The position numbers and the translations under genes are program-made. Positions 35,790-52,954 of a stretch of DNA of 64,000 nucleotides are shown here, one piece after another (positions within the stretch are counted from its first letter, which is position 1; each line of letters begins with the position of its first letter). Source of the stretch: Lysinibacillus sp. 2017 (GTDB lineage: Bacteria; Bacillota; Bacilli; Bacillales_A; Planococcaceae); assembly GCF_003073375.1 (NCBI RefSeq), contig NZ_CP029002.1, positions 3,384,001 through 3,448,000 of the forward strand, in the 5' to 3' direction. The notes under the pieces are model-generated. The model was not told where the DNA came from. It worked only from the letters and a program-made list of their open reading frames with translations, and did no database searches.

Positions 35790-37175
35790 TTATTGCTCAG
35801 ATAAGGCTAACATAATAATTTTTGCTAATTGCGCACGTGTTACCTTATCTGCTGGAGCAAATGTTGTTGCACTTGTTCCTTCAACAATACCACTTTCATA
35901 CAAAAAGTTTACTGCTGTTTTTGTTTCGTCATCATATTTTGCCATATCTTTAAATGGCATTGAAGCTGTTGGCGTATATTCTTCTCCCGTTAAATTATTG
36001 GATAAGCGTAGTAACATTAATGCCAATTGAGCACGTGTTAATTCACCTTTAGGATTGAACGAACCACCGTTTTCTTTAATTAGTCCCGCTTCATAGGCTG
36101 CTGCCACTTCGATTTGTGTTTGTTGATCGTATTGACTAATGTCTTTGAATGGTGCTGACGTTGTAGCTTTTAAGTCAAACGCACGGGCAAGTACTGAAAC
36201 CACTTGTACACGTGACATACTTACACTTGGCTTAAATGTTCCGTCATCATAGCCTTTTAAAATTCCTAAATCATACGCTGCAATAATATATTCTCGTGCC
36301 CAATGTTTTGAGATATCTGGGAAGTAATCAAAATCGATGTCTTCTTCTGGTACGATATCCTCAAAATCATAATCAATATCATTTAAAAATGCAGTTACAT
36401 AATCTAGCATCATTTTTTCGGCAACCACTTCATAGCCTGCCTCACCCAAATGCACATTATTTGGATTTGGTAAGTATTCTAAATGATTACTTGCGATAAT
36501 ATCTGCTACCTCTGAGAAAACACCCTCATTTTTTTCAACAACGGCTTTAATGGCATTATTCATCGTTGAAACTAATGTATTAAGTTGTGTTTGAATTGCT
36601 GCATCTTGTAAGTATGGATATGGATTATATAGCCCCATAACGATAACATCAGCATCTGGATTTATTTTTTTGATTTCAGCAAAAATTTTCTCATAATTTG
36701 CTGATACCGTTTGAATTGTTTGTAAAACAGCTGGCAAATCAAAAGTAAATTGTCCTGATTCTGAGCGATTCACATATTTTAAAACATCATTTGCACCAAC
36801 ACTAAGCGAAATTAAATCTGCTTGTTTAATCGCTTTATGAATTGTCGTTGTAGTTTGTGAAGGTCCATCTAAATCATAAATATTTTTCGTTACATCCGCT
36901 TGAATGTCATTTAATACGTTCACTGTCGTATAACCTGGGAATGAAAATCCTTTATTGAACTGAATTTGATTCACTTCGTCTGTATACTGTAATGCAATAA
37001 AATCTGCATAACCATAACCAATTTCATGATTTTCATTCATACCAGCTGCCAACGAGTCCCCAAGTGCTAAATAATTTAGTTGTTCCTCTGTTGTCTCTGC
37101 TTGAACATTTGTTGAAAACGGCAACACTACTTGTAAAACTAATAATAATGTTGCAAAAACGCTAAACTTTTTCAT
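35790..37175 (-). CDS. secreted SGNH (GDSL) hydrolase with three SLH domains
   Basis: The 461-residue product has a Sec signal peptide (MKKFSVFATLLLVLQVVLPF, cleavage near QAE). An SGNH esterase domain follows with block I LALGDSLAAGM, block III SVGANDVL and block V NNVHLGEAGY. Three SLH domains span residues ~285-461, each with an ITRAQ/SRVQ-like core (MSRVQVV, LTRAQLA, VTRAQLA). SLH domains bind pyruvylated secondary wall polymer, so the enzyme should be held at the surface. GGGGGAATTGG precedes the start. Substrate unknown. Confidence 0.9.
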   Translation of the reverse strand: MKKFSVFATLLLVLQVVLPFSTNVQAETTEEQLNYLALGDSLAAGMNENHEIGYGYADFIALQYTDEVNQIQFNKGFSFPGYTTVNVLNDIQADVTKNIYDLDGPSQTTTTIHKAIKQADLISLSVGANDVLKYVNRSESGQFTFDLPAVLQTIQTVSANYEKIFAEIKKINPDADVIVMGLYNPYPYLQDAAIQTQLNTLVSTMNNAIKAVVEKNEGVFSEVADIIASNHLEYLPNPNNVHLGEAGYEVVAEKMMLDYVTAFLNDIDYDFEDIVPEEDIDFDYFPDISKHWAREYIIAAYDLGILKGYDDGTFKPSVSMSRVQVVSVLARAFDLKATTSAPFKDISQYDQQTQIEVAAAYEAGLIKENGGSFNPKGELTRAQLALMLLRLSNNLTGEEYTPTASMPFKDMAKYDDETKTAVNFLYESGIVEGTSATTFAPADKVTRAQLAKIIMLALSEQ

Positions 37176-37567
37176 CCAATTCCCCCCTATTTGTGAAACT
37201 AGTTCATAATTATAGAGTATCTTATTATAAAAGACAAAATACAATATATTTGTAACTTTTAGGCCATTTGATTCTATTTCCTTAACTATATTAATATAAC
37301 ACCTATCCATGAATAAATTTTATTTTCCCCATCAATCCCTCTATATCTAAGTCACGCACACTATTTGGATTATAAATTTCTTTATAAAATCCTTTATATT
37401 CTATACGACACACCTCTTAAATGCTTATTAAAATAAGTATATTTGTATAACCGATTTAGGGAGCATTCTCGAAAAATAGGTACAATAAACATGGTATACC
37501 TTTATTTATCGATGGTTTTTTGACATAGTTTGTGACTTTCTATTTAATATTCAAAAGCTCGGGAAGT
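37176..37567. other. intergenic, no gene seen; promoter-like site
   Basis: No coding frame is supported. A plus-strand TTGACA (37520-37525), 17-bp spacer and TTTAAT (37543-37548) form a good promoter match. It points at the decayed glycosyltransferase fragment and the SASP gene. Confidence 0.5.
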
Positions 37568-37678
37568 GGTTTTATTGTTTGTTCAGCTTTTATCAACAAT
37601 GAAGAGGCTGTCATTGTACGCTGTTTAGATTCAGTTTAGGATTTAGTGGATGAAATTAATATTGTAGATACCAAATGA
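37568..37678 (+). pseudogene. fragment of a family 2 glycosyltransferase
   Basis: One frame reads SAFINNEEAVIVRCLDSV, a stop, then DLVDEINIVDTK. This matches the N-terminal segment of GT2 glycosyltransferases (NEEAxIxRCLDSVxDLVDEIIIVDTGS). An in-frame TAG, no start codon and loss of everything after the first DxD-proximal strand mark it as a relic of about 37 codons. Confidence 0.6.
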
Positions 37679-37838
37679 ATTAGCTATCGAACTTAATTCA
37701 GGTGGCAAACTAAAATGGAATAATTTGATCATGTCATCGTATCAAATTTCCATTGTTAAAGTTATTCATTTATCTCATATACTAGCTGAGGATATTTTTT
37801 TAAAACCTGCTTATATTAATGGAAAGGGAGGTGCGATT

Positions 37839-38162
37839 ATGACCCAGATACAAAATAAACTGCAACAAATGAAATTAGAAATAGCAGCAGAATTCGGAAT
37901 TGAGAACTACGATTTGATTGATAAAGGTGAATTACCTTCTAGAATGAATGGTAAAATCGGTGGTGAAATGACCAAGAGGCTAATTGAATTAGGAAAAATG
38001 CAATTAGTTCAAATGTCGCAACGAGAATTAGTACCTATACTCGTAAAAAGAGAACAAGTTATGAAAAAGCAACTTATGCTTCCTTGGCCTGAACAGTACA
38101 GTGGGGATTTTTTGCCAGCCCATTTTCATTATAATTCCCAAAAGAATAACTTTTATAAGTAA
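37839..38162 (+). CDS. alpha/beta-type small acid-soluble spore protein with long C-terminal extension
   Basis: The 107-residue product contains the SASP core: LQQMKLEIAAEFGIENYD with the GPR-protease site (Glu-Phe in AEFGI), then SRMNGKIGGEMTKRLIELG, matching the SRxNGxVGGxMTKRL signature. Such proteins coat spore DNA and protect it from UV. Unlike usual 60-75-residue SASPs, about 45 extra residues follow (VPILVKREQVMKK to NNFYK). The ATG at 37839 has GGGAGGTG 6 nt upstream; longer in-frame starts lack a site. Its terminator is the integrase-derived hairpin at 38194. Confidence 0.75.
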   Translation: MTQIQNKLQQMKLEIAAEFGIENYDLIDKGELPSRMNGKIGGEMTKRLIELGKMQLVQMSQRELVPILVKREQVMKKQLMLPWPEQYSGDFLPAHFHYNSQKNNFYK

Positions 38163-38191
38163 CTTTTATTAAGTGAATCACAAAAGAAATA

Positions 38192-38236
38192 AAAGAAGCG
38201 TCTCACAAGTTTATTCAACTCATGAGACGCTTCTTT
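38192..38236 (+). pseudogene. 3'-end fossil of a tyrosine integrase
   Basis: The frame reads KEASHKFIQLMRRF, nearly the C-terminus of the intact integrase at 51661-52872 (KEASHKFAQLMRRFD). About 36 of 42 bases are identical. As with the intact gene, an attachment-type repeat follows within about 10-20 nt. Everything upstream of this piece is gone. Confidence 0.75.
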
Positions 38237-38239
38237 TTT
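38194..38239 (+). terminator. terminator formed by the integrase fossil
   Basis: AGAAGCGTCTCA and TGAGACGCTTCT are a perfect 12-bp stem with a 17-nt loop and T6. It lies 32 nt past the SASP stop codon. Confidence 0.85.
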
Positions 38240-38245
38240 CTTACA

Positions 38246-38300
38246 ATGTTAGCAAATCACTTTCACCTTACATACAAACGCTTGTTTATCAAGGGTTTGA
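38246..38300 (+). repeat. left attachment-type repeat of the island
   Basis: A 34-bp block (38246-38279), a 7-nt variable spacer and a 14-bp block (38287-38300) are repeated in the same order and orientation at 52892-52946. The outer core contains CAAAC and GGGTTTG arms. It marks the boundary distal to groEL. Confidence 0.8.
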
Positions 38301-38311
38301 GTATAAGAAAC

Positions 38312-38491
38312 GCGGGCTAAGATCGCCACATCGTGTGGCAACGCCCGCATGACCGAGATCGAACTAAGGTTCAAAGGCTAAAACCGCGACGTCCTGTCGC
38401 AACGCCTTTGTCACCACGTCCATGTATAAAGGAAGTCAAGCTAAACTCGCCACATCGTGTGGCAACGCTTGACTGACCCGCATCGTGCGGG
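38312..38491. repeat. array of nested hairpins with covarying stems
   Basis: Three units share the plan outer arm - CTAA + CG - inner hairpin - AACG - outer arm. Outer arms differ but always pair: GCGGGC/GCCCGC (38312/38343), CAAAGGC/GCCTTTG (38372/38404), GTCAAGC/GCTTGAC (38435/38467). Inner hairpins are GCCACA-TCG-TGTGGC twice and GCGAC-GTCCT-GTCGC once. A fourth simple hairpin CCCGCA-TCG-TGCGGG follows at 38477. The stretch is visibly GC-richer than its surroundings. Inverted 14-bp motifs CACTTTCACCTTAC (38258) and GTAAGGTGAAAGTG (38509) flank it. It is not a gene; a reading frame across it is fortuitous. Confidence 0.85.
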
Positions 38492-38521
38492 CCTACATCA
38501 TTCCTGGCGTAAGGTGAAAGT

Positions 38522-38922
38522 GTGTAATATCTATCACGATGTGTTCCAAAAGTGCGGTAAATCAAGGTTTATGGAAATCATAACTGTAACATCTTTCATG
38601 ATAATTAATCTTTTTTCATCAGATTGCGTTAGCAAAATGTTAGCATGCACCTCTGCTTTCTTCTTCCGTACTTCAATCGAAGATTTTATTCTAGATTATT
38701 TACTCTAATTACAACAAGTGCTTCGCTTCTTTTACAGAATGTTAATTGTGGCTGATATTTCGATGAATAATTACTCTTAATAAAGGTGATTGCTTAATAG
38801 CCTCACCAACTAATTTGCTTAATCCAACGCAGCAGCCTTATACTTATCAGTGATTTCAAAAACCTTATTATTTACTTCATTATTTTTATTACCAATTTAC
38901 CAACTCCATTTAATATGCAATT
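38522..38922. other. island left arm, no gene seen
   Basis: The stretch is AT-rich without a supported frame. At 38628-38645 it carries the 18-bp GTTAGCAAAATGTTAGCA that also precedes the right attachment repeat (52883-52900). This may be an integrase arm site. Confidence 0.5.
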
Positions 38923-41022
38923 TTATTGATTAAAAAATTTTTTCAAAGCTTTCTCAGTAATTGAGTAATATCTTTTTCCATTAGTGTAATAAGAAATATA
39001 TTTTGTCTCATCTGTAGTTATTTTTTCAATAGCCTTTGTTATTGCCAAATGGTGTTTATCTAATACATCGCCCAATTGTTTAGCTGTCATTGGTGAATTT
39101 TCATTAAACAAAGTTCTTAAAATATTCATACAAACATCTGGAAGGGATTCATTTTTCCATTTTTCTTGAAGTTCTTTTTGTAAACTAACATACTCATCTT
39201 TAGCCCTAAGAGTAATTTTTTGACCACAGTTAACACATCTTCCATGTTTCTCTATTATTATTAAATCTTGATCATCAAACTCATAAGAACATTTTTCACA
39301 TATATTGGTTTTACTTTTCCGGAAAAAATTATTAATAAATTCATCTAAATCAAATTCTGGTTGTCTCCAATAATCATATCTATTTCTAAGTTTAGGTCTC
39401 CCATAGTCTATTTTCTTTTCCATGCAAAAACCATAGTTTAAACCGAAATAAGAAATCTTTGATCCATCAGCTTCTTTAGGACTTCCTTCATTAAATTTTG
39501 TCACAATAAAATACAACTCTAAAGTCTTTAATAACTTATCGTTATTAGTTCTTATACTAAAATGTGAAGTTGGAACCCATAAAGCAGAGGTAGCGCGACT
39601 TTTACTTTCAATGGTATCTATAAATATTTTTTTTAATTTTGATTTATTATTTGTATAAAGTTTAACTATATCCCTCTTAGTTTGGTACTGGGTTTCGACA
39701 ATCTCATCAGCAAATTTATTTTGAATTAGTTGTGTAATCATTCCTTCTTCATCATCATAAAATGATTGCTTATATCTTATATCATTCTTAAAATCCGGCA
39801 GAATATTTCTATTAAAGTAACTTAATGAAGCATTTTCCAAATCTACAATCTGAATTTTTTTCCCCTTCGAAATACTACTTAACATGCAATAATTCAAGAT
39901 AAATCCTAATGCTCTCGGTATACCTGATGATATGTAAAATAGCATTGTAAGATATTCATTTAAACTTTCTGTACCGGTATCAAAAATATCATCTAATTCT
40001 ATATCTTGATTCACATAATATTTTAATCTTTTCTCTAAAGTTCTTTGTACATAATTAATTGTAGTACTTTCCACCTTATCATACGTAGAAGATAGAGGAC
40101 CAAATGCATCGTAAAAATCAAGTGAAATAACAGGTAGTTTAGTACTATCTATATTCCCTAAATATGTTCTTGTAGGATAACCTGCTAACTTAATTACGAA
40201 AGAATCATTGTAAGAACTTATAATTGGTGCTATAAGTGAATCTACAATTACTTTTTGATTTTCTTTACTTAATTCACTAAAATCATCTAAAAATAAATAA
40301 ACTTTATCTTTACCTTTTGACTTTAATATTTTTGTAAATTCTTTTAGTATGTTATGTACAGAAAAAATTCTAATTTCATTCTTAGTGAAAGTTTCAGTTA
40401 TTTCATCACTCTTTATTTTTTCATATTCCCCATTCCCTTGTAGTAATGAACCACTTATTACTTCCTCTAGATTTGTGTCTACTGCAACTTTCTTATTTGT
40501 TTGTTCTAATTGTTTTTTTACTGTTTCAATCTTTCTTCTGAACTCCGGGTCAATATACTCCCCATTTTCTATTTTAGAGAATAATTCATTAAAGACTCTC
40601 TTTGATGAGAATAAACTAGTACACTTTTCTTTCATTTTTTCAAATATTGCTGTTAGAAAGTTCTTATACATCATATCCTTTTGAAGGATTTCTTTTAGTT
40701 TATCTGTTGTATCTATTGATTCTAATTCTTCTATACAAGTCTGAAGATTTATGTATACAGAAAAAAGATTTTTTGTACTATCAATTTCCTTTTCTGCCGA
40801 CATAAAAATTGTCGATTTCCCAGTACCCCTTCTCCCTAAAAATAAAGTGTGGTTTTCATCCTTTGCTTGTCTTAATACATAATCATCATTAAATAAATCA
40901 ACATATAAATCCTTTACAATACTTTTTCCATTTTCTTGTATATCAGGTCGTCCACTCTTTTGTAATGATTTAAAAGCCTTTTCTATACTAGTAGATACCG
41001 CTTGAAGTTCAAATTCATTCAT
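38923..41022 (-). CDS. large P-loop ATPase with zinc ribbon and C-terminal winged helix
   Basis: The 699-residue protein has Walker A GRRGTGKST (63-71), Walker B VYLFLDD (241-247) and a sensor-2-like SSGIPRALG (366-373), the layout of Orc/STAND-type ATPases. A four-Cys zinc ribbon lies at 575-599 (CEKC and CVNC). The last ~80 residues look like a winged helix (MTAKQLGDVLDKHHLAITKA). GAGGGGAA precedes the ATG. I do not recognise a named family. In this island, next to a CHAT protease operon, a role as a sensor or effector ATPase in phage defence is inferred. A 620-bp gap and a hairpin separate it from the CHAT gene, so it probably has its own promoter. Confidence 0.8.
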   Translation of the reverse strand: MNEFELQAVSTSIEKAFKSLQKSGRPDIQENGKSIVKDLYVDLFNDDYVLRQAKDENHTLFLGRRGTGKSTIFMSAEKEIDSTKNLFSVYINLQTCIEELESIDTTDKLKEILQKDMMYKNFLTAIFEKMKEKCTSLFSSKRVFNELFSKIENGEYIDPEFRRKIETVKKQLEQTNKKVAVDTNLEEVISGSLLQGNGEYEKIKSDEITETFTKNEIRIFSVHNILKEFTKILKSKGKDKVYLFLDDFSELSKENQKVIVDSLIAPIISSYNDSFVIKLAGYPTRTYLGNIDSTKLPVISLDFYDAFGPLSSTYDKVESTTINYVQRTLEKRLKYYVNQDIELDDIFDTGTESLNEYLTMLFYISSGIPRALGFILNYCMLSSISKGKKIQIVDLENASLSYFNRNILPDFKNDIRYKQSFYDDEEGMITQLIQNKFADEIVETQYQTKRDIVKLYTNNKSKLKKIFIDTIESKSRATSALWVPTSHFSIRTNNDKLLKTLELYFIVTKFNEGSPKEADGSKISYFGLNYGFCMEKKIDYGRPKLRNRYDYWRQPEFDLDEFINNFFRKSKTNICEKCSYEFDDQDLIIIEKHGRCVNCGQKITLRAKDEYVSLQKELQEKWKNESLPDVCMNILRTLFNENSPMTAKQLGDVLDKHHLAITKAIEKITTDETKYISYYTNGKRYYSITEKALKKFFNQ

Positions 41023-41398
41023 TTCTTATTTCCCCTCTCATCAAATATAACTTCTATCTTGATATTTTTAGTTTAGTGATTACAACCAAAAAATTAATTT
41101 CCAAAAATAGTTCCATTTAATTTTACCACATTTAAATTTTGTATTTTTATAACCTTCTATAATTTTTAAATAACCTAAAATTATCGATATTTTTTGTTTT
41201 TCTTATCCTCCAACCAAGAACTCTCCGAAATTTATGTAATAGCATATTAAATCTAATATTCTCGTCTACTGGTGAGATGAATCGATGCAAAAAGCTAACC
41301 TCTAATGCTAATTCCACCATTTTATGTATTAAACAATAGCTCTATATAGCTTCCAAAAATTTAAAGTTTTAGTGAGTAATAATTTTTAATTTTCCTAA
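41023..41398. other. AT-rich intergenic, no gene seen
   Basis: This separates the ATPase gene from a recombinase relic. No frame with a ribosome-binding site was found. The ATPase promoter should lie in its first 100 bp, but I could not single one out. Confidence 0.5.
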
Positions 41399-41497
41399 AG
41401 ATTTTTTAAATCTAAAATAACAATAAAAACAGACGGTCAATTAAAGGTGAATTATCACACTCCTAAACCGTCTGTTTTTTATGTGTATCAATATTAA
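41399..41497 (+). pseudogene. C-terminal relic of a serine recombinase
   Basis: The frame reads KSKITIKTDGQLKVNYHTPK and then PSVFYVYQY before a stop. This resembles the extreme C-terminus of large serine recombinases and a second relic at 51379-51477 (VKADNLKVHYRASKSSAFYV). No catalytic domain remains. Confidence 0.6.
41428..41480. terminator. hairpin inside the recombinase relic
   Basis: AAACAGACGGT and ACCGTCTGTTT are an 11-bp perfect inverted repeat with a long loop. T6 follows on the plus strand and an A-rich run lies before it. It could end transcription from either direction, including leftward from the CHAT gene. Confidence 0.55.
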
Positions 41498-41643
41498 ATT
41501 AGATATTTCAAAGACACATTTAGAGCCTATTTCTTATTCATCGTCTACGGTTTAGTTGAGTCATCGCGCCACTTAATAGCTATTAATACATCTGAATACC
41601 ATATGCCATCCTGCCTTATCAAGAAGATCCTTTTTTCAATGTT

Positions 41644-42690
41644 TTATGGTTTTACTAAAATCAACTTTTTCAAATCAATTCCTTCTTTACCATATAACTC
41701 AGGTGTATTTTCTTCTTCAATTCCTTCTAGCATTAACGCTGCTTTTGCTTGTTTAAATGCTTTTTCTACCGAGTAGCCAAACCCTAAAGCTGAATAAAAT
41801 TGAGCAGAAAATACTCTAGCCGCTTCATCTCCTATAGATGTATTCATTCCTATCGCAGCATCTAAATATTCTGTAACTGAGTAAGCCTGATTATATGAGA
41901 AACAAGTATTAAAGAAAACCAATTTTATATCATCGGAAGTAGTAACCATCGATTGAACAATAGCTTCTTTAGAAACAAACTTTGCATTACCTGCGTTGTC
42001 TTGTAAAACTAATTGATCTTCATCTGAACCATGCCCACTAAAATGAATTATAGTAGGATTTATTTCATTTATTCCCTGTAGAATATCTAATGGTCTAGCT
42101 GCCCATTTTGTTACAAACTCTATAGAATTCCTATATTCAGATTGTCTAATTTTAGTTTCTATTTCTCTAGCTTCTTCATCTAATCTTAAAGGATGTGAAT
42201 CTAATGGATTAGACGCTATAAATAGTACCGTAATCTTTTCAGGTATATTTTTTAGCTCAGCTATTTCCGTTTGAGTTTGATGATGGAGCTGTTCATGCTT
42301 AGAAATAGAAACTTGCATATTCTCAATTTCAGAAAGCTGTTTTTTTTCAAATTCCATTCTTTTTTTTATTTCCCTCGATTCTTCACGATGTAATTTACTT
42401 TCTTCAGCAGATATTTCAGTAGATTTCTGAGCTATCTTTTTTTCAATACCTGAAATTTTTTGACTTACTTTACTTAATTGAGTATTATACCTTTCTATTT
42501 CCCGTGTTTTAGATTGAATTGTTGAGCTATTTTTGGTTCTTAGAATACTCTTTCTCGCAAAAGTAATTTTCTTTTCTAAATCAGCAACTTTTTTTATTTC
42601 TGAAGCTTTATCTGATTGTAATTTAGATAATTCTTTCTTTTTCCTTAAAACGGTATTAGCGATAGTCGAAGACGTTGGCAAATCATTCAC
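41644..42690 (-). CDS. CHAT-domain caspase-like protease with N-terminal coiled coil
   Basis: The 348-residue product has a long charged coiled coil (about 12-145) and a CHAT peptidase domain (about 153-345). The catalytic dyad is visible: His220 in IHFSGHG and Cys263 in VFFNTCFS. The C-terminal EAARVFSAQFYSALGFGYSVEKAF helix region is typical of CHAT. CHAT proteases are effectors in bacterial immunity, where they cut partner proteins and can kill the host cell. It follows DUF2188 and DUF1883 genes on the same strand; a hairpin lies in the 59-nt gap before it. Target unknown. Confidence 0.88.
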   Translation of the reverse strand: MNDLPTSSTIANTVLRKKKELSKLQSDKASEIKKVADLEKKITFARKSILRTKNSSTIQSKTREIERYNTQLSKVSQKISGIEKKIAQKSTEISAEESKLHREESREIKKRMEFEKKQLSEIENMQVSISKHEQLHHQTQTEIAELKNIPEKITVLFIASNPLDSHPLRLDEEAREIETKIRQSEYRNSIEFVTKWAARPLDILQGINEINPTIIHFSGHGSDEDQLVLQDNAGNAKFVSKEAIVQSMVTTSDDIKLVFFNTCFSYNQAYSVTEYLDAAIGMNTSIGDEAARVFSAQFYSALGFGYSVEKAFKQAKAALMLEGIEEENTPELYGKEGIDLKKLILVKP

Positions 42691-42708
42691 CCATTTCTTA
42701 TAGATAAT

Positions 42709-42735
42709 AGGTTATACACTACGAATCTATAACCT
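42709..42735 (-). promoter_or_regulatory. intercistronic hairpin before the CHAT gene
   Basis: AGGTTATA and TATAACCT form an 8-bp stem with an 11-nt loop and no T-run, in the gap between the DUF1883 and CHAT genes. It could lower or time CHAT expression relative to the small genes. Confidence 0.45.
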
Positions 42736-42749
42736 TTTATAAGTTTCAA

Positions 42750-43007
42750 TTAAATAATTTCAATAGAATGTCGTATCGATCCACCTGCAAGTCCTAAATC
42801 TATTGTAATATTCCACATACCTGTTGAGGATGCAGGTATTATTACAGTATTATTAATCACTTGTCCATAAAAATAACTATGTTTACGCCCATTTCTATAA
42901 TTACTAAAATTACTATCACTCATAAATTTTACATTCGCCGGCCGATTTAATGTTACTCGAACTCTTTGTCCTTCTCGAAGAAACATTCGTTTGTGTAAAA
43001 ATTGCAT
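42750..43007 (-). CDS. DUF1883 domain protein
   Basis: The 85-residue all-beta protein has LREGQRVRVTLNRPANVKFM, SNYRNGRKHSYFYGQ and MWNITIDLG, matching my memory of DUF1883. Homologues are found alone or fused to TIR and other effector domains in conflict systems; their function is unsettled. It starts 6 nt after the DUF2188 stop and uses GGGGTGAT, which includes that stop codon, as ribosome-binding site. It lies upstream of the CHAT gene and is a plausible modifier or sensor for it. Confidence 0.85.
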   Translation of the reverse strand: MQFLHKRMFLREGQRVRVTLNRPANVKFMSDSNFSNYRNGRKHSYFYGQVINNTVIIPASSTGMWNITIDLGLAGGSIRHSIEII

Positions 43008-43013
43008 AATTTA

Positions 43014-43235
43014 TCACCCCTTCGGTGGATATGGGTCATTGCCATAACTATTTCTTTCACGAATTTGGCCTTCACGATTATGAATGAACAGCTCACTTTT
43101 TTGATTTTTAGCAATACTCTGCGCTGCTTTAATTGCTTGTTGTTGTGTTTGATGGATACTAGTTGCGCGTGAATTACCAGCGCCTTTAACTTGCCACATA
43201 CCATCTTTAGGTGTTACGTGTTGATTCTTACCCAA
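43014..43235 (-). CDS. DUF2188 domain protein
   Basis: The 73-residue product is a full-length DUF2188 domain: MGKNQHVTPKDGMWQVKGAG, the Q/A-rich helix QQQAIKAAQSIAKNQ, then the signature NREGQIRERNSYGNDPYPPKG (in part). The start is TTG with AAAAGGAG about 10 nt upstream. DUF2188 proteins are small, widespread and of unknown function. They commonly accompany DUF1883 proteins, as here. It is the second gene of the presumed defence operon. Confidence 0.88.
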   Translation of the reverse strand: MGKNQHVTPKDGMWQVKGAGNSRATSIHQTQQQAIKAAQSIAKNQKSELFIHNREGQIRERNSYGNDPYPPKG

Positions 43236-43310
43236 AATACTCAGCTCCTTTTAATCTAACAGTTTAAAAAGAACTAACCGTCCACAATTAGCTCATATGA
43301 TAATTATTTG

Positions 43311-43493
43311 CTACTTTTTATCGACTTTATTTGGTTCAGATTTTTGCTTTTCTTGTGCTTTTTCCTCAAGGAAAGCTTGATGTTTTTCTATAGATACATC
43401 CCAACAAAAGGCTTTAAGACCTTGATCTTTAGCGTATTTCCGAACACCTTTAACTGTAATATAAGGGCGACAAATTTTTATTGTTTTTTCCAT
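43311..43493 (-). CDS. small hypothetical protein (60 aa), first gene of the CHAT operon
   Basis: ATG with GAGGAGAGG about 7 nt upstream. The product starts MEKTIKICRPYITVKGVRKY and ends in a Lys/Glu/Gln-rich tail (EEKAQEKQKSEPNKVDKK). No family is recognised. It is co-oriented with, and 75 nt upstream of, the DUF2188 gene. Confidence 0.6.
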   Translation of the reverse strand: MEKTIKICRPYITVKGVRKYAKDQGLKAFCWDVSIEKHQAFLEEKAQEKQKSEPNKVDKK

Positions 43494-43532
43494 AATGATC
43501 CTCTCCTCAAGTTATGATAAATTCCTATCAAT

Positions 43533-43692
43533 TCCTTGCAGTTGAGACCAAAATATGTTAAAGTTCAGATAATTTTAATGTTATTTTATCTACTATCGCT
43601 TCTGCAAAAGCGATGTGAACGGAAGTAGAATTTACTTCTGAACCTTAAACTGTAGTTGGTTCCCTGCAAGGAGTCCATCTACAGTTTTTTTT
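43533..43692 (+). ncRNA. candidate structured RNA ending in an intrinsic terminator
   Basis: On the plus strand TAAAGTTCAG (43559) can pair with CTGAACCTTA (43638). This encloses hairpins ATCGCTT/AAGCGAT (43595-43614) and GAAGTA/TACTTC (43622-43638). A terminator AAACTGTAG/CTACAGTTT (43647-43687) plus T8 follows. The terminator loop carries CTGCAAGGA (43664-43672), complementary to TCCTTGCAG (43533-43541), a possible pseudoknot. No coding frame fits. It could be a small RNA or an attenuator for the membrane-protein gene at 43977. The evidence is by eye only. Confidence 0.45.
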
Positions 43693-43976
43693 ATTTTCAT
43701 CACCCATTGCACTACTCCTTTCATCTTGAGATAATTCAATGACTAATAATTTAAACTAAAAAATATTTTCTGAATATTAAAGACGTAATTCGGATTATAA
43801 TTACCTTGTTTTCAAAATGCAAGAAAATAGTTCGAACATGCATTCTTATTGGTATTATAATCCATTTTAATAGAATATTACAGAAAAATCAAGGTACACA
43901 ACACAATATATTGTGTTATGTTTTTACAAATAAATCTATATGTTGCGAAAATAGTCTGTTAGGAGTGTTATAAAAA
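43693..43976. other. intergenic with operator-like palindrome
   Basis: No gene is seen. At 43900-43917 an 18-bp perfect palindrome (AACACAATATATTGTGTT) lies 59 bp before the membrane-protein gene, where a repressor site would be expected. Confidence 0.55.
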
Positions 43977-44750
43977 TTGAAACTCATGAATTTAAATGCC
44001 ATGAATTTAGCAAAAGTAAATTACCTATCTAGCTATGAACTTTATTTAGTTTTTCTACAAACCATTTTATTAATTTTTATCTCTGTTCCTTACACCATAG
44101 GGGATATCAAAATCTATTTCTTACTAGCCTTTATGTTAGTATCTATTGTTCAAATCATTTTTTTCTCTATTAGACGTGGAACTTCTAATTATAAAACAAA
44201 ATATTGTGTTTTAATGGTTCTATATATCGCTCAATTTTTTTTAATGATTATTGTTATATCTTTTCTGCAAATGATAAACGACCACATAATTTTTCAAAAC
44301 ATGCTGGCAATTATTTCTGTAATATTTTTTTGCATTATTGGATTTTTAAGTTTGAGCATGTCAATAAAATACATCTTCTACTTGAGATTAAAGAAAATGT
44401 TTCCGACACACGGGGATAAAGAAAACTCAGCAGAAGTGAAATTAATAAATTTAGCACCTTTTTTATCGGTTGATAAGCAAATAGCGTATCTATTACTCCA
44501 CTATGGAATAAATTTAACGATTTACGGTTACTATACATTCTTATGTCTACTAGCATTTAAACTAGCTGATTTCTCAAAATGGGAGTTATTCAATCAAATA
44601 CAGATGTTCATACAGCGATGCACCTTTATTAACTTTTCAAATGCAATAGGGTTATTTTCTATATTCCTGGCTCTTCTAACTATTTGCATACCCGCACAAC
44701 AAAAGATCCGTTATGAAGCAGAGCAAAGGTACTTTGCGAAATTCAAGTAA
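43977..44750 (+). CDS. six-TM membrane protein of unknown function
   Basis: The 257-residue product has about six hydrophobic helices (around residues 19-36, 44-62, 77-99, 107-130, 170-195 and 217-240) joined by short basic loops, and no recognisable motif. I took the TTG with AGGAG 11 nt upstream; an ATG three codons later is farther from the site. It is the only plus-strand cargo gene here. A membrane partner in defence is possible but unsupported by any motif. Confidence 0.65.
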   Translation: MKLMNLNAMNLAKVNYLSSYELYLVFLQTILLIFISVPYTIGDIKIYFLLAFMLVSIVQIIFFSIRRGTSNYKTKYCVLMVLYIAQFFLMIIVISFLQMINDHIIFQNMLAIISVIFFCIIGFLSLSMSIKYIFYLRLKKMFPTHGDKENSAEVKLINLAPFLSVDKQIAYLLLHYGINLTIYGYYTFLCLLAFKLADFSKWELFNQIQMFIQRCTFINFSNAIGLFSIFLALLTICIPAQQKIRYEAEQRYFAKFK

Positions 44751-44756
44751 TAATAA

Positions 44757-44792
44757 AAGATGTTGATCCCCTGGGTTCAACATCTTTTTTAT
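44757..44792 (+). terminator. terminator of the membrane-protein gene
   Basis: AAGATGTTGA and TCAACATCTT form a 10-bp stem with a 10-nt loop and T6, 7 nt after the stop codon. Confidence 0.9.
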
Positions 44793-44906
44793 ATATTCTC
44801 ATACTTTTTAAATTCTAACACTAACAAATAAGTCTTTAGTCCTGTTAGAACGAATAGAAATCAAAGCTATTATATTTACACTTTTTTTAGAAAGGAGGGT
44901 TTGTGC

Positions 44907-45026
44907 TTGGATAATAATAATTTCAAGGAGGCTTTGTTAGCAAAAACTAATGAAGATATCTCTGAGACTGTAATTCAAATTTTTATCCAGCTCTATCTTT
45001 ATGAACAAGAACATCAAGAAGTATAA
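44907..45026 (+). CDS. small hypothetical protein (39 aa)
   Basis: TTG start 7 nt after AAAGGAGGG, an excellent ribosome-binding site. The product begins MDNNNFKEALLAKTNEDISE, is acidic and probably helical, and ends EQEHQEV. It is the first of two small genes leading into the serine-recombinase pair. Function unknown; the strong initiation signal is the main evidence. Confidence 0.6.
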   Translation: MDNNNFKEALLAKTNEDISETVIQIFIQLYLYEQEHQEV

Positions 45027-45181
45027 ATTCGCATTTTATTCACCTAGAAAAGTTTATTGGAAGCGTAATAGCAGTAAGAAAAAATATTCAGTCGGCATAC
45101 AACTAACTTTAGACATTTAAATGTATATTTCCTCCTATTTATGGGAATTGTTTTGTAAAACCATTGAAGGGAGGAATTGAT

Positions 45182-45343
45182 ATGTCTAAGCTTTGTAGAG
45201 TTGTGAAGGTTAGTTACTCAAACGAACTTTCTAGAGAATCTGCTATGTGGATTGAGAAGTATATCGAATCGATATTAATTCAAGAAATTATCGGTAAAGA
45301 TATTACAAAACTCCATCTGTTATTAATGAAAAGCGAGGAGTAG
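45182..45343 (+). CDS. small hypothetical protein (53 aa) before the recombinases
   Basis: ATG 5 nt after GGGAGGAA. The product begins MSKLCRVVKVSYSNELSRES and is predicted helical. Its stop codon is 2 nt before the first serine recombinase, so they are translated together. The spacing suggests a recombination directionality or accessory factor, but this is inference. Confidence 0.65.
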   Translation: MSKLCRVVKVSYSNELSRESAMWIEKYIESILIQEIIGKDITKLHLLLMKSEE

Positions 45344-45345
45344 AT

Positions 45346-46710
45346 ATGAGTAAAGAAGAATATATTATTGTTTACAGTCGAGTTAGTTCTGCAGCGCAAA
45401 GTCTTTCAATGCAAATTAGTCTCGCAAAACAGTATTTAGAACGTGAAAATATCGATTCAAGTGAAGTTCAATTTATCGATGATCATGATGTATCAGCAAC
45501 AAAACTATCTATGTATGATAGAAAAGGATTAAATAAGCTAATAAAACAAATTAAAGCTGACAAAGCACACAAAGTAATTGTTTATAAACGAGACAGACTT
45601 GCGCGAAACTTTTATGAGTATTCTGAGCTAGCAAAATTATTTATTAATTATAATCTTGAAGTAATTTTTACAGCTTCGGATGAACCACCATTTTCAAATA
45701 ACCTAGCATTAGAATCATTTTATGGTATCTTCGCACAAATGGAAGGTAATAGCATTAAAAGTCGTACAGATGATGTTCGTAAGCAATATCCTTCTAATAT
45801 TTTTGGTTATATACGTAATAAGAACGAAGGCTTAGTCACTTATACTGCTAACCCTGAAAAAGCTGATGTGGTTCGTTCATTATTTGAAAAAGCTGCTAGT
45901 ATTACATCGGCAGAGATGTTTATCGATTTTTTGATTGAAAAACATCCATTTAAGTTTGAGCAGAAAATAAAGGTATTAACAAATTCTTTTTACGCTGGTT
46001 ACTTCCAGAAAAATGAGTTGTTTCAAAAGTTATCACATGTAGAACCTTTAACAGATTTAAGCTCTTTCAAAAAAGTAAATAGCATCATTGATACGTATTT
46101 AAAAGACTTTAATAATGCCTTAAACCTAACACCTACACTAATGTACAAGTTACCAAAATGCGACTATTGTAAAAATACAATGAAAGTGAAACGACAGCAT
46201 CCTTTAGATTCCGGTCAAATTTATTGCAGTAACGGTCATAAGAAAGTAGAAATCTCAATTGTAGAATATAATCAGCAAATTTCACTAACTTTACATGAAG
46301 AGTTACTAAAATTTAAACACTCTCATTTACGTAAAATTGCAGTTAATACTTTAAAAGGCGAAAAAGTAGCGTTAGAACAACAATTAAAGCAACTAAAAAA
46401 TAATTACCAAAATGCTCTATTAGATTTAACTTCATCATTCGATTCTGTAGATGCACGATACGATAAATCTTTAGCAACACTCGATTTATTAAAAAACTCA
46501 ATTTCAATAACATTAGATGAAATTACAATGATAGACAACTTAATTGAAGAAATAAAAACCTTAACAGATTATTTAAATTCATTCAATTTAACTTTAAGTA
46601 CTGAAGATTTAATAAATATAGCTACATTACTTGTAGAAGATATTCATGTTGGACATGATTTCACCTCAATTACATTATTTCTTACAGCAACAGAAAACGG
46701 AGTAACTTAA
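45346..46710 (+). CDS. large serine recombinase A
   Basis: The 454-residue product has a resolvase catalytic domain (about 1-145) with nucleophile Ser in YSRVSSAAQS and the Arg cluster YKRDRLARN. A reduced recombinase domain follows, then a Cys/His zinc ribbon (CDYC near 270, then CSNGH) and a C-terminal coiled coil. Such enzymes integrate or excise elements by double-strand cleavage at short att sites. The stop overlaps the start of recombinase B by 1 nt. Tandem large serine recombinases recall ccrA/ccrB of SCC elements, but the sequences are different. Confidence 0.88.
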   Translation: MSKEEYIIVYSRVSSAAQSLSMQISLAKQYLERENIDSSEVQFIDDHDVSATKLSMYDRKGLNKLIKQIKADKAHKVIVYKRDRLARNFYEYSELAKLFINYNLEVIFTASDEPPFSNNLALESFYGIFAQMEGNSIKSRTDDVRKQYPSNIFGYIRNKNEGLVTYTANPEKADVVRSLFEKAASITSAEMFIDFLIEKHPFKFEQKIKVLTNSFYAGYFQKNELFQKLSHVEPLTDLSSFKKVNSIIDTYLKDFNNALNLTPTLMYKLPKCDYCKNTMKVKRQHPLDSGQIYCSNGHKKVEISIVEYNQQISLTLHEELLKFKHSHLRKIAVNTLKGEKVALEQQLKQLKNNYQNALLDLTSSFDSVDARYDKSLATLDLLKNSISITLDEITMIDNLIEEIKTLTDYLNSFNLTLSTEDLINIATLLVEDIHVGHDFTSITLFLTATENGVT

Positions 46711-48185
46711 TGTTAAATAATAATATTACTGCTTACAAAACTGTAGCCTATATACGTTTTTCAGATGAGAAGCAAAAAGGTAATCATTCCATCGAGATAC
46801 AAAAAGCACAAATTTTAATGTTTGCTGAGCGTAACAATCTTGAAATTGTAAGATGGTGTATTGATGAATCAACTAGTGCCTACTCTAAAAAGATTGAATC
46901 TCGTAAAGGTATGCAACAAGTTATTGAACAAATACAAAATGGGGCTGAGGCCTTATGTTTCTATGAGGAATCTCGTTTAACTCGACAGATTACAGATTTT
47001 TATTTTTCTGTTTACTCACATATCAAAGAGCAGTTTCCACATGTTAAATTTTATAGCACACAAACTGAAGGAGAATGGGATCCAAATAATCCATTAGTCC
47101 AAGCTAAATTCGTTTTTGCAAATGAAGAGTCTCAAATAAAATCTGTTCGTGCTAAAGATACTCAATCTGAGATTTTAAAAGAAAAAAACCTATCTCGACC
47201 TGGTTCAAGAATACCGACAGGCTATGAAATAGTGGAAGGTAATTTAGTCCCTAATAAAGACTTTCGCGTAGTTTTATTAATTTACTACCTCGCCATTTGG
47301 GGACATTCACATCAAACAATTGCAACTTATTTAAATAACGCTAATATCGTTACGAAGAAAATAACTACTTGGCATGGCAGCACGATCAGTTATATATTAA
47401 ATAACCCTGCTTATGATGGTATTTTACAATGGCATAGCAATAAAGAGGTTTTTACTTTTACAAACACTCACAAGTCTATTGTTGGACCAACTATGTTGCA
47501 TCTTAGTAAACAAAGCTTGGAACTCAAGAAAAAGTATGGAAAAATGGATACACCATTTTATTTCCGCGATTTATTAGAATGTAAAAATTGTTGCTCTACT
47601 TTAGTAGCAAAAGATAATTCCCCACGAGGAAAGAGTAAACAATACTTAGTTTACAAGTGTGCCTCATGCAAAGAGAGTGTTAATATCGAAATCGTTCATG
47701 AAGCAGTGTTTCATGAACTTACAAATGGTATTAGTACTCAAAAAGAAAAACTAATTAAAAATGCTTATGAACAGTTATATAGTTGGCAGATAAAATTCCA
47801 TGAATTAAAAGAAACTGTAATTCATCAATTAAAAGCTCACCATGAAAAGCTCGGACTTCTACAGCAAAGTAATAATCCGAATAAAGAAGCTTTAATGAAT
47901 TCTTTTAATGAATCAATTCTGTATTTTAAAACAAAAAAAGATGAATACAATTCTTTAATTAATACTATCGATGAGCTGTTGAATGATAGCGGATTTAATA
48001 AAACACTCGATATGCTTTTACAAAGTCATATTTATAATTTATCGAATACCGAAAGAAGAATTTTTAGTCTTAGCTTCATCAATAAGATTCAAATTGATTT
48101 CCAAAAAGATTGTGATTTAACAATTGATTTTCGTTTAACACCTTTTGTTGCATTAGAAAACTTTCTGGTTGAAAAACCGAATTAA
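46710..48185 (+). CDS. large serine recombinase B
   Basis: The 491-residue partner of recombinase A has the catalytic Ser in YIRFSDEKQ, Arg-rich YEESRLTRQ, and a recombinase domain with SHQTIATYLNNANI. A zinc ribbon CKNCCSTL...CASC (near 292-325) and a coiled coil lie before the C-terminus. Its last codons (FLVEKPN) contain the first of five copies of a 15-bp motif that continue downstream. It is translationally coupled to A through TAATG. Confidence 0.88.
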   Translation: MLNNNITAYKTVAYIRFSDEKQKGNHSIEIQKAQILMFAERNNLEIVRWCIDESTSAYSKKIESRKGMQQVIEQIQNGAEALCFYEESRLTRQITDFYFSVYSHIKEQFPHVKFYSTQTEGEWDPNNPLVQAKFVFANEESQIKSVRAKDTQSEILKEKNLSRPGSRIPTGYEIVEGNLVPNKDFRVVLLIYYLAIWGHSHQTIATYLNNANIVTKKITTWHGSTISYILNNPAYDGILQWHSNKEVFTFTNTHKSIVGPTMLHLSKQSLELKKKYGKMDTPFYFRDLLECKNCCSTLVAKDNSPRGKSKQYLVYKCASCKESVNIEIVHEAVFHELTNGISTQKEKLIKNAYEQLYSWQIKFHELKETVIHQLKAHHEKLGLLQQSNNPNKEALMNSFNESILYFKTKKDEYNSLINTIDELLNDSGFNKTLDMLLQSHIYNLSNTERRIFSLSFINKIQIDFQKDCDLTIDFRLTPFVALENFLVEKPN

Positions 48186-48370: not shown

Positions 48371-48460
48371 AAAATTTCATTTTAATTTAAAATCGCTCTT
48401 CGAATATCAAAAAATGCAGATATAATGATTAACACTAATTGAATAATTCTCTATAAACGA

Positions 48461-48520
48461 AAACCGTAACGAGATTTGGTTCACATTTTTATGTGATCTA
48501 TTTCTGTTGCGGTTTTTTTA
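48461..48520 (+). terminator. terminator before the excisionase gene
   Basis: AAAACCGTAAC and GTTGCGGTTTT pair with one mismatch across a long loop, followed by T7. Confidence 0.65.
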
Positions 48521-48566
48521 TTCAAATTATTAATAACTCATTGTATTTTGAAAGGATTTGTTTGAA

Positions 48567-51660: not shown

Positions 51661-52872
51661 ATGAAAGGACATTATTACAAGAGGGGTTGCACATGCAAGA
51701 AGAAAAAATGTACTTGTGGTTCCAAATGGGCTTTTACGATTGATATTGGCGTAGATCCGATGACTGGGAAACGGAAGCAAAAGGTACGGAGTGGTTTTAA
51801 TTCTAAAGAGGACGCTATTCAAGCAGCTACAACTCTTTTGCATGAGCTAAACCACGAGACGTATATCGAGGAGTCAGATCAAACGTTTAGTGCTTTTGCA
51901 AAAGAATGGCTCTCCATTTACAAAGAAGTAAATGAAGTGAAACCCGGAACCATACGCGTCAGACTGCATGAAATTTCAAAGTTAATGCTCTATTTTGCAC
52001 ATTTGAAACTTAAAGACATTACCAGAAAACACTATCAAGATGCGCTAAACCATTTAAAGGACCAAGGCTATTCTGATAGTACTAGGGGAGGAATACATCG
52101 AACAGGGAGGATGATTTTCCGAAAAGCATTAGAATTTGAGCTGATTAAGAAAGACCCTACTGAGTTTGCCTATCTGAAAAAAGATAAAAAATCGATTGAG
52201 CAATTAGAGGTAGAGGAAATCCCTAAGTATTTGGAAAAGGAAGAGTTGGCATTGTTCTTAAAAACCGCACAGCTACACGGACTGGAACTCGATTACTTAA
52301 TGTTTCTTGTTCTTTCCTATACAGGCATTCGTGTAGGTGAACTCGTTGCTCTTAAATGGCAAGATGTTGATTTTGAACAACAGACAATCCGAATAACGAA
52401 AACGTATTACAATCCCAATAATAATTCGGTACAGTTTCAATTAGTTACACCCAAAACGAAAACCTCTAGAAGAAAAATCGTCGTGGATGAGGTTGTGATC
52501 CGCGCGTTACGTCAACACAAAGAAAATCAAGAAAGGATAATACTCCAATTGGGTGATGTCTATATTCAACAAGACTTCATTTTTGCTAAAACAACGCGTC
52601 ATCCCGGTTACCCAATGGTCATCAAAATGGTACAACTCCGGATGGCTAGGTTACTAGCTCTGGCCGATTTGAATACAGACTTAACACCGCACTCCCTGCG
52701 ACATACACATACGTCACTATTGGCAGAGGCAGGTGTAGCACTCGAACAGATTATGGACAGACTCGGCCACGCTGATGATCAAATCACCAAAAACATTTAC
52801 CTGCATATTACGAAAGAAATGAAAAAAGAAGCATCCCATAAGTTTGCACAACTCATGAGACGCTTCGATTAA
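51661..52872 (+). CDS. int: tyrosine recombinase / integrase 2 (island integrase)
   Basis: The 403-residue integrase has the Cys-rich start CTCKKKKCTC, an arm-binding domain, a core-binding domain and a catalytic domain with Arg in TGIRVGEL, HSLRHTHT, LGHADD and Tyr in NIYLHIT. Its stop lies 19 nt before the right attachment repeat, which abuts groEL. This gives the int-att order typical of the enzyme that placed the island. It is about as long as integrase 1 and clearly a paralogue. GCGAGG about 10 nt upstream is a weak ribosome-binding site; an overlapping ATG is followed at once by a stop. Confidence 0.93.
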   Translation: MKGHYYKRGCTCKKKKCTCGSKWAFTIDIGVDPMTGKRKQKVRSGFNSKEDAIQAATTLLHELNHETYIEESDQTFSAFAKEWLSIYKEVNEVKPGTIRVRLHEISKLMLYFAHLKLKDITRKHYQDALNHLKDQGYSDSTRGGIHRTGRMIFRKALEFELIKKDPTEFAYLKKDKKSIEQLEVEEIPKYLEKEELALFLKTAQLHGLELDYLMFLVLSYTGIRVGELVALKWQDVDFEQQTIRITKTYYNPNNNSVQFQLVTPKTKTSRRKIVVDEVVIRALRQHKENQERIILQLGDVYIQQDFIFAKTTRHPGYPMVIKMVQLRMARLLALADLNTDLTPHSLRHTHTSLLAEAGVALEQIMDRLGHADDQITKNIYLHITKEMKKEASHKFAQLMRRFD

Positions 52873-52882
52873 TTGCTATAAT

Positions 52883-52946
52883 GTTAGCAAAATGTTAGCA
52901 AATCACTTTCACCTTACATACAAACCCAGCTATATCAAGGGTTTGA
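52883..52946 (+). repeat. right attachment-type repeat beside groEL
   Basis: GTTAGCAAAATGTTAGCA (52883-52900) runs into the 34-bp block (52892-52925), a 7-nt variable spacer, and the 14-bp block (52933-52946). Both blocks recur at 38246-38300. CAAACCC and GGGTTTG form an inverted pair across an 11-nt centre, as expected for a tyrosine-recombinase core. It could also act as the groEL 3' hairpin. Confidence 0.8.
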
Positions 52947-52954
52947 CAGGCTTA

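What the first reader, a model, noticed from the sequence alone, without database searches (positions are those of the whole stretch)
41644..43493. Candidate immune operon: 60-aa protein, DUF2188, DUF1883 and a coiled-coil CHAT protease
Four co-directional genes in a mobile island end in a CHAT protease with an intact His220/Cys263 dyad and a 130-residue coiled coil. DUF2188 and DUF1883 are small families of unknown function that keep company with each other and, for DUF1883, with TIR-type effectors. Together they suggest a defence unit in which the small proteins sense or gate a suicidal protease. The first three genes are tightly packed; a hairpin before CHAT could keep the toxic product low. 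I know of no characterised system with this exact composition.
Basis: partly seen in the sequence, partly recalled or inferred. Interest (0 to 1): 0.82.

Follow-up and report, generated by a model that had tools for sequence, protein, structure and literature searches.

The report
Cassette-built immune operon with CHAT protease
A short gene cluster in a bacterial mobile island looks like a suicide switch assembled from interchangeable parts, and one small part of it (DUF2188) also stands first in several unrelated bacterial immune operons.

Summary
The four genes exist as described, on the minus strand. The last encodes a coiled-coil-CHAT (CC-CHAT) protein whose His220 and Cys263 are invariant in 36 of 36 aligned sequences. 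The genes lie in a repeat-bounded island at a groEL hotspot.

In 80 CC-CHAT loci DUF1883 occurs in 6 and DUF2188 in 2, each upstream on the same strand; 72 have neither. The exact set was seen nowhere else in the loci fetched. A same-genus genome has the same left part (mem257, ORF60, DUF2188), but homology stops 12 bp past DUF2188, where a CBASS pair replaces DUF1883-CHAT. So the operon is a leader plus an exchangeable effector.

The parts recombine elsewhere: the coiled coil with TIR (PADLOC candidate PDC-S66), DUF1883 with TIR, DUF2188 before CBASS, TIR or ubiquitin-like operons in 7 of 14 plasmid loci opened, but in only 1 of 12 other regions of the window's order. Protease activity, killing and phage defence are inferred. 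No structure could be computed (server busy).

The parts
41644..42690 (-). CC-CHAT: coiled-coil N-terminus (about residues 1-145) plus caspase-like CHAT domain, His220/Cys263
   Evidence: Pfam PF12770 27 bits (cut-off 24) and PADLOC PDC-S66 match of residues 8-157; dyad invariant 36 of 36
42750..43007 (-). DUF1883 small protein, putative sensor or ligand-binding partner of the effector
   Evidence: PF08980 E 1.6e-20; solved relative 2b1y, weak, E 0.0086; upstream of CC-CHAT in 6 of 80 loci
43014..43235 (-). DUF2188 small protein, recurrent first gene of immune operons (PADLOC PDC-S16)
   Evidence: PF09954 E 1.6e-26; PDC-S16 E 3.3e-38 over 73 of 73 residues
43311..43493 (-). ORF60, small protein of no known family, before DUF2188 here and in one same-genus genome
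   Evidence: 3 of 261 genomes of the order search, plus a second copy in the own genome; precedes DUF2188 in G162
43560..43695 (.). structured leader element between the divergent genes (candidate small RNA with terminator on the + strand, or leader with a 20-codon ORF on the - strand)
   Evidence: fold z -5.07 (+) and -5.63 (-), 0 of 200 shuffles as good; matched in 2 of 260 genomes, own and G162, 91% in G162
43977..44750 (+). mem257, divergent hydrophobic protein of no known family, part of the shared left part
   Evidence: 50% identical match in G162, in the same divergent place; no Pfam, PHROG or NCBIfam match
41428..41482 (-). strong hairpin with a U run after CHAT, probable terminator
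   Evidence: fold -27.3 kcal/mol, z -5.93, 0 of 200 shuffles as good; not listed by the simple terminator scan, which allows loops of 3-8 only
43271..43294 (-). terminator-like hairpin between ORF60 and DUF2188
43002..43014 (.). cassette junction: homology to the CBASS-bearing relative ends here
   Evidence: blastn 67.9% over 1753 columns, window 44722 to 43002
38191..38300 (.). left repeats of the island (att-like, with a piece like the 3' end of the integrase gene); a further 18-nt copy at 38628-38645
52824..52946 (.). right repeats of the island, over the end of the integrase-type gene and up to the groEL 3' end
51661..52872 (+). integrase-type gene at the groEL end of the island
   Evidence: ORF and translation; the name is read from the sequence by eye, no family scan was run on it

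Best explanation
The locus is an abortive-infection type immune operon built from interchangeable cassettes. The left part (ORF60 and DUF2188 with a divergent gene and a structured leader) is a leader that can be followed by different effector sets. The effector set here is DUF1883 plus CC-CHAT, a caspase-like protease carried on a coiled-coil module that elsewhere carries a TIR domain. Most likely DUF1883, a small domain that is fused directly to TIR effectors in other bacteria, detects or relays a phage- or stress-derived signal in trans to the coiled coil; this assembles or unmasks the CHAT domain, which cleaves host proteins and stops the infected cell. DUF2188 would act one level up, as a general controller or adaptor of the effector that follows it. 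Shown: gene content, invariant dyad, recurrent linkage, module exchange, defence-type surroundings, mobility. Inferred: proteolysis, cell death, what is sensed, the direction of control.
For: Dyad invariant in 36 of 36. DUF1883 in 6 and DUF2188 in 2 of 80 CC-CHAT loci (881 kb), each upstream on the same strand, no other match in those loci at E<=1e-4; the labels need at least 5 and 3 changes on a quick tree of 78 CC-CHAT proteins. Homology with a same-genus CBASS operon stops 12 bp after the DUF2188 stop codon. Coiled coil shared with CC-TIR: 32% over 130 residues, E 5e-13; the CC-TIR matches PDC-S66 over 1-280 of 282. DUF1883-TIR fusions on two E. coli plasmids and in two genomes of the same phylum. 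DUF2188 is the first gene before TIR, CBASS phospholipase, CBASS Cap15, multiubiquitin-ThiF or CC-CHAT. CC-CHAT lies directly behind hsdS, with hsdR further on, in L036, L045 and L048. Neighbour scan: 144 PADLOC models against 6 in the control.
Against: 72 of 80 CC-CHAT loci have neither DUF1883 nor DUF2188, so CC-CHAT does not generally need them. In 12 further DUF2188 regions fetched from the window's order only G162 showed an immune operon behind DUF2188 (one region, L146, not resolved). 7 of 14 plasmid DUF2188 loci and 2 of 4 plasmid DUF1883 loci opened show no recognised effector. In viral contigs no TIR or CHAT lies beside any of 58 DUF2188 loci, and TIR only in L281 of 53 DUF1883 loci (other effectors not scanned there). 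The 144 models include many models matched by the same two or three genes, so they do not count genes. The CHAT score is only just over the cut-off. The whole set was seen once. No structure prediction ran; no experiment.
Confidence: 0.6

Rival explanations
1. Chance company in a defence island: ORF60, DUF2188 and DUF1883 are independent passenger genes (as in prophages), and CC-CHAT works alone through its own coiled coil.
For: 72 of 80 CC-CHAT loci lack both small genes; DUF2188 and DUF1883 also occur in viral contigs without TIR or CHAT beside them, L281 excepted; only 1 of 12 further DUF2188 regions of the order has an immune operon behind it; no second locus with both small genes.
Against: All 8 small-gene occurrences in 80 loci sit upstream on the same strand, 7 of them next to CC-CHAT, in separate tree places; DUF1883 occurs in only 5 of 261 genomes of the order search; DUF1883 is fused to TIR; DUF2188 overlaps the predicted CD-NTase start by 4 bp in L170 and lies 2-9 bp before the next gene in L307, L310 and L312.
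Confidence: 0.25
2. Toxin-antitoxin type: DUF1883 and/or DUF2188 is the inhibitor that holds the protease off, and loss of the inhibitor on infection frees it.
For: Small upstream partner in the same operon; hairpins between the genes could set the ratio.
Against: CC-CHAT stands without them in 72 of 80 loci, so no general antitoxin of these families is needed; fusion of DUF1883 to a TIR effector fits a sensor or regulatory domain better than a separate antitoxin.
Confidence: 0.15
3. DUF2188 and ORF60 are controllers of expression of whatever immune cargo follows (a new kind of Cap controller); DUF1883-CC-CHAT is the entire effector.
For: Homology border just after DUF2188; DUF2188 stands first, next to divergent HTH and ImmA/IrrE genes in L135, L305, L307 and L312, one HTH matching PADLOC capH E 2.1e-21, and near a WYL gene in L311.
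Against: DUF2188 is co-directional with the effectors, not part of the divergent regulator unit; lone DUF2188 genes control nothing visible; no DNA-binding motif was shown.
Confidence: 0.35
4. A stress-response or island-maintenance function, not phage defence.
For: The island carries integrase- and recombinase-type genes; a DUF1883 protein (MrpB) in C. difficile belongs to a pair tied to colony morphology and cell division (PMC12393383, passages read).
Against: CC-CHAT relatives stand beside Abi_C (L007), OLD-like (L029) and restriction genes (L019, L036, L045, L048); modules shared with TIR effectors.
Confidence: 0.15

Closest known systems
PADLOC candidate PDC-S66 (coiled coil-TIR)
   Same: N-terminal coiled-coil module, residues 8-157 against 4-152 of the model; a CC-TIR of Niallia fits the model over 1-280 of 282
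   Different: The effector is CHAT instead of TIR; PDC-S66 is itself called uncharacterised (PMC12482510, passages)
DUF1883-TIR proteins (two E. coli plasmids opened; two genomes of the same phylum)
   Same: DUF1883 as the non-effector part
   Different: Fused in one chain with a TIR effector; here a separate gene before CC-CHAT. phrog_9211 (268 positions) holds DUF1883 at 11-94; what its rest is was not checked
CHAT domain-containing protein 8tl0 (SAVED-CHAT, name recalled)
   Same: Closest solved CHAT domain (profile E 6.4e-34)
   Different: No SAVED match here; coiled coil instead
CBASS (CD-NTase with Cap15 or phospholipase)
   Same: Takes the same place after ORF60-DUF2188 in G162, and after DUF2188 in Phaeobacter and Mesorhizobium plasmids (in Phaeobacter the phospholipase is annotated in two pieces)
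   Different: No CD-NTase in the window operon
CapH-CapP, CapW and CapK-CapS controllers of adjacent immune pathways (PMC13373217, abstract and passages read)
   Same: Genes at the head of unrelated immune operons
   Different: DUF2188 is co-directional with the effectors and has no shown regulatory domain; that paper reports a YegP homologue after capKS in 57 of 443 cases; a relation of YegP to DUF2188 was not tested
PrrC inside EcoprrI type I R-M (recalled, from no call)
   Same: A suicide effector gene lodged between hsdS and hsdR, as CC-CHAT in L036, L045 and L048
   Different: PrrC is a tRNA nuclease; CC-CHAT is a predicted protease; the window operon has no R-M genes

Membership tests
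CHAT proteases (PF12770) | CHAT domain above curated cut-off | tested here: met
   27 bits against 24
CHAT proteases (PF12770) | catalytic His-Cys dyad | tested here: met
   His220, Cys263 invariant 36 of 36; that these two are catalytic is recalled knowledge of the family
CHAT proteases (PF12770) | proteolytic activity | not testable with these tools
   needs bench work
PDC-S66 | coiled-coil N-terminus of the model | tested here: met
   E 2e-17, residues 8-157
PDC-S66 | TIR C-terminus of the model | tested here: not met
   no TIR match in the window protein
PDC-S16 / DUF2188 | full-length match | tested here: met
   E 3.3e-38 over 1-73
DUF1883 (PF08980) | near full-length match above cut-off | tested here: met
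   73.2 bits against 26, positions 1-85 of 89
CBASS | CD-NTase in the operon | tested here: not met
   none among the ten window proteins scanned
Thoeris | TIR (ThsB) with ThsA | tested here: not met
   no TIR among the ten window proteins scanned
SAVED-CHAT / type III CRISPR effectors | SAVED domain | tested here: not met
   of the SAVED_CHAT model only positions 303-452 of 498 are matched
CHAT-gasdermin pairs | gasdermin beside the protease | tested here: not met
   no gasdermin match among the ten window proteins scanned; mem257 and ORF60 have no family, so a divergent one is not excluded
Cap controllers | change of downstream expression on DNA damage | not testable with these tools
   position only

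The most novel reading that the evidence does not exclude
DUF2188 is an unrecognised general component of bacterial immune operons: a 73-residue protein with a strongly conserved SYGNDPxPPKG tail that stands first, in several cases 2-9 bp before the next gene, in front of CBASS, TIR, ubiquitin-like and CC-CHAT effectors and often next to HTH-ImmA (CapH-type) regulators, acting as a shared controller or adaptor; and CC-CHAT is a plug-in suicide protease joined in turn to DUF1883, DUF2188, Abi_C and type I and III restriction systems, in three loci in the PrrC-like place behind hsdS.
Probability: 0.42. Interest if true: 0.83.

Novelty: new variant of a known kind. Interest (0 to 1): 0.72.

Why it matters
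It would give a testable unit (DUF1883 with CC-CHAT) for how bacterial caspase-like proteases may be switched without a cyclic-nucleotide or CRISPR sensor in the operon, and point to one tiny family, DUF2188, as a common part of otherwise unrelated immune systems. Natural exchanges (same leader with CBASS or CHAT cargo; same coiled coil with TIR or CHAT) offer ready-made comparisons for finding what each part does.

Tried and rejected
Fixed four-gene system: rejected, since no second locus with DUF1883 and DUF2188 together was found among the loci fetched. Antitoxin role as the leading model: put down because 72 of 80 CC-CHAT loci lack the small genes. Viral-contig search with the single CHAT protein: 13 stretches, no relative confirmed. 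The 16-mer of the leader element in viral contigs: 5 matches, judged chance by their flanks. YegP (DUF1508): no match in 61 genomes searched (it rang in 4 of 14 control genomes), so its relation to DUF2188 stays untested. The larger upstream gene of the Niallia CC-TIR was compared with the ORFs of the loci held at the time: no match beside a CC-CHAT gene, one beside DUF1883-TIR in E. coli (E 2.2e-25). Structure prediction for CC-CHAT (A4) and DUF2188 (A5): the machine was busy each time, so there is no model and no fold search. Papers: 4 papers of the library hold DUF1883 (3 listed) and 7 hold DUF2188; by title and abstract start none of the listed ones is about CHAT or about these genes as parts of immune operons, but the 7 were not opened, and one review names DUF1883 in TIR protein architectures. 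Searches on CHAT protease with phage defense, on CHAT domain with coiled-coil, TIR, restriction and abortive infection, and on multiubiquitin with Cap regulators gave listings in which I saw no description of this arrangement. The PDC-S66 and PDC-S16 search gave one paper naming PDC-S66, opened for passages.
Full report
What is there. On the minus strand the window holds ORF60 (43493-43311), DUF2188 (43235-43014), DUF1883 (43007-42750) and a 348-residue CHAT protein (42690-41644). Family scans put the three named families over their cut-offs, CHAT only just. PADLOC gives DUF2188 a full-length match to candidate PDC-S16 (E 3.3e-38) and the N-terminal part of the CHAT protein a match to candidate PDC-S66 (residues 8-157, E 2e-17). 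A strong hairpin with a U run follows CHAT (z -5.93; outside the loop limits of the simple scan), so the ATPase gene further on (41022-38923) is probably a separate unit. The hairpin before CHAT is weak (z -2.06); a terminator-like one lies between ORF60 and DUF2188.

The island. A 15.6 kb segment lies between groEL and a gene whose best match is 76-837 bp from groEL in 11 of 15 same-genus genomes; the other four gaps are 2.4, 4.7, 8.1 and 10.2 kb (distances). Direct repeats at both ends, one set over the end of an integrase-type gene and the groEL 3' end, mark an integrated element of about 14.3-14.7 kb.

The CC-CHAT family. tblastn on plasmids gave 71 records with a match, 18 of them covering at least 80% of the query; a scan of genome contigs gave 442 relatives, of which the best 80 were kept. 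The six best full-length ones are 56-62% identical and in Bacillaceae; 50-55% is reached in Pseudomonadota, Bacteroidota, Spirochaetota and Planctomycetota. In 36 sequences (the window and 35 of the 80 loci) His220 and Cys263 are invariant. The nearest solved CHAT domain is in 8tl0 (E 6.4e-34). In the order search the gene was found in 2 of 261 genomes.

Linkage of the small genes. In the 80 loci (881 kb; 78 of them with at least 400 bp before the gene) DUF1883 occurs in L020, L073, L077, L078, L079 and L083, and DUF2188 in L035 and L066; each lies upstream of CC-CHAT on the same strand, next to it except in L079, where a 171-aa gene lies between. L073, L077, L078 and L083 carry near-identical DUF1883 proteins and count as one group. 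On a quick tree of 78 CC-CHAT proteins the DUF1883 label needs at least 5 changes and the DUF2188 label 3; L083 was too short to enter, the tree carries a long-branch warning, and gains and losses cannot be told apart. As background, DUF1883 occurs in 5 of 261 genomes of the order search and 5 of 398 of the phylum search, the window's own included; DUF2188 occurs in 94 of 261, at E<=1e-22 in 14. 72 of the 80 loci have neither gene. DUF1883 and DUF2188 together were seen only in the window's own locus.

Cassette exchange. In a same-genus genome (G162, L170) a mem257 homologue stands divergent from ORF60 and DUF2188 as in the window; DNA homology (67.9% over 1753 columns) runs from window 44722 to 43002 and ends 12 bp after the DUF2188 stop (alignment). 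In place of DUF1883-CHAT come a CD-NTase (PADLOC cyclase E 7.4e-105), whose predicted start overlaps DUF2188 by 4 bp, and Cap15 (PF18153 E 2.3e-20).

Module exchange. A Niallia protein joins the same coiled coil to TIR (BLASTP 32% over 130 residues, E 5e-13; PDC-S66 over 1-280 of 282). DUF1883 is joined to a related TIR in an E. coli plasmid protein, in a second E. coli plasmid and in two genomes of the same phylum. The gene upstream of the Niallia CC-TIR has a relative beside the E. coli DUF1883-TIR (E 2.2e-25). Of 4 plasmid DUF1883 loci opened, 2 are such fusions and 2 show no recognised effector (L133, L308). Of 8 DUF1883 regions fetched from genomes other than the window's, 2 are fusions, 5 look phage-like or HTH-rich by eye and 1 is followed by other genes.

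DUF2188 as operon head. I opened 14 plasmid loci out of 435 records (339 of them Klebsiella, represented by one locus); they were picked for variety from two listings, not at random. In 7 of 14 DUF2188 is followed on the same strand by an immune operon: TIR (L135, L305), CBASS phospholipase and nucleotidyltransferase (L303, L312), multiubiquitin-ThiF-DUF6527 (L307, L310, L311). For L312 and the three ubiquitin-like loci the labels rest on record annotation; the one ThiF scanned matches PADLOC E1-E2 models only weakly (best 5.7e-05), and in L311 DUF2188 itself is not annotated. In the other 7 no such operon is annotated behind it (L136, L137, L302, L304, L306, L313, L314). Gaps to the next gene in the six measured immune cases are 2-85 bp. 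Divergent HTH and ImmA/IrrE genes stand beside it in L135, L305, L307 and L312; the HTH of L305 matches PADLOC capH (E 2.1e-21); a WYL gene stands near in L311. Against this, in 12 further DUF2188 regions fetched from the window's order only G162 shows an immune operon behind DUF2188; G168 has a 166-aa gene of no known family there, L146 was not resolved, and the neighbours of the others were judged by eye. In viral contigs, 58 DUF2188 loci hold no TIR or CHAT and 53 DUF1883 loci hold TIR only in L281; other effectors were not scanned there.

Defence surroundings. 145 genes next to CC-CHAT were collected, 142 fitted a size cap, and 119 were scanned (3 CC-CHAT fragments and the 20 from L087 on were left out). 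They match 144 PADLOC models at E<=1e-20, among them type I and type III restriction, GajB and methyltransferase models. 119 genes from 12 evenly spaced stretches of the window's own genome match 6, one of these in 6 genes. The tool gives numbers of models, of which 25 are shown, and many are models of one kind matched by the same two or three genes; the number of defence genes cannot be read from it, and the control comes from one genome. CC-CHAT lies directly behind hsdS, with hsdR further on in the same direction, in L036, L045 and L048 (one gene intervenes before hsdR in L036 and L048), and behind a type III restriction gene in L019 and, by the likeness of its printed start to that of L019, in L169.

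Mechanism. Shown are content, conservation, linkage, exchange and mobility. Inferred is that the coiled coil assembles or unmasks the CHAT domain, that DUF1883 relays the trigger in trans as it may in cis in DUF1883-TIR, that proteolysis stops the infected cell, and that DUF2188 is a general controller or adaptor. The PrrC comparison is recalled. [quoted passage not shown] Since 72 of 80 CC-CHAT loci lack the small genes, these are better seen as optional sensors or controllers than as antitoxins.

Verdict. A partly supported finding, more modular than first read; a new variant of known abortive-infection effectors, with DUF2188 as the most novel lead. Confidence 0.6 in the overall reading.

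Noticed in passing
window 43560-43695: Strongly folded leader (z about -5) with a 20-codon ORF (MGxxxKKNCRWTPCREPTTV, the x differing between the two sequences at hand) on the minus strand and a hairpin with a T run on the plus strand; 91% conserved over 104 nt in G162, while the whole homologous stretch is 68% identical.
   Followed up: partly
L036:4832-12355, L045:4668-10383, L048:3662-10587: CC-CHAT genes behind hsdS within type I restriction operons of records named Pirellulaceae, Anaerosalibacter and Sumerlaeaceae, as recalled for PrrC.
   Followed up: partly
L019:2750-7035, L169:5029-9309: CC-CHAT directly behind a type III restriction gene in two related loci (L169 not scanned).
   Followed up: partly
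window 38301-38491: Three tandem Bacillaceae-1 RNAs (RF01690) at the left edge of the island.
   Followed up: no
window 38923-41022: ATPase-type gene with below-cut-off matches to ATPase_Sll1717 and the anti-phage model DS41_1; maybe a second defence gene of the island.
   Followed up: no
window 35790-54586: The region downstream of groEL is an insertion hotspot: gaps of 0.08 to 15.6 kb among 16 same-genus genomes.
   Followed up: partly
L098:4161-4643 and L134:2461-3177: Related genes of unknown function beside CC-TIR (Niallia) and DUF1883-TIR (E. coli), another shared part.
   Followed up: no
window 45346-48185: Two serine recombinase genes (Resolvase domain) in tandem, overlapping by one base, inside the island.
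   Followed up: no
L138-L142: A short DUF1883 subfamily in surroundings that look phage-like or HTH-rich by eye; a close relative of it precedes CC-CHAT in L073, L077, L078 and L083.
   Followed up: partly
L168:4646-4783: Second ORF60 copy elsewhere in the own genome, near an integrase-like gene; the genome has a single DUF2188 match, in the window.
   Followed up: no
window 41644-42690, phrog_15646: The coiled-coil part of the window protein (residues 9-133) matches a phage protein family of unknown function (E 1.2e-13), so the module may also travel in phages.
   Followed up: no
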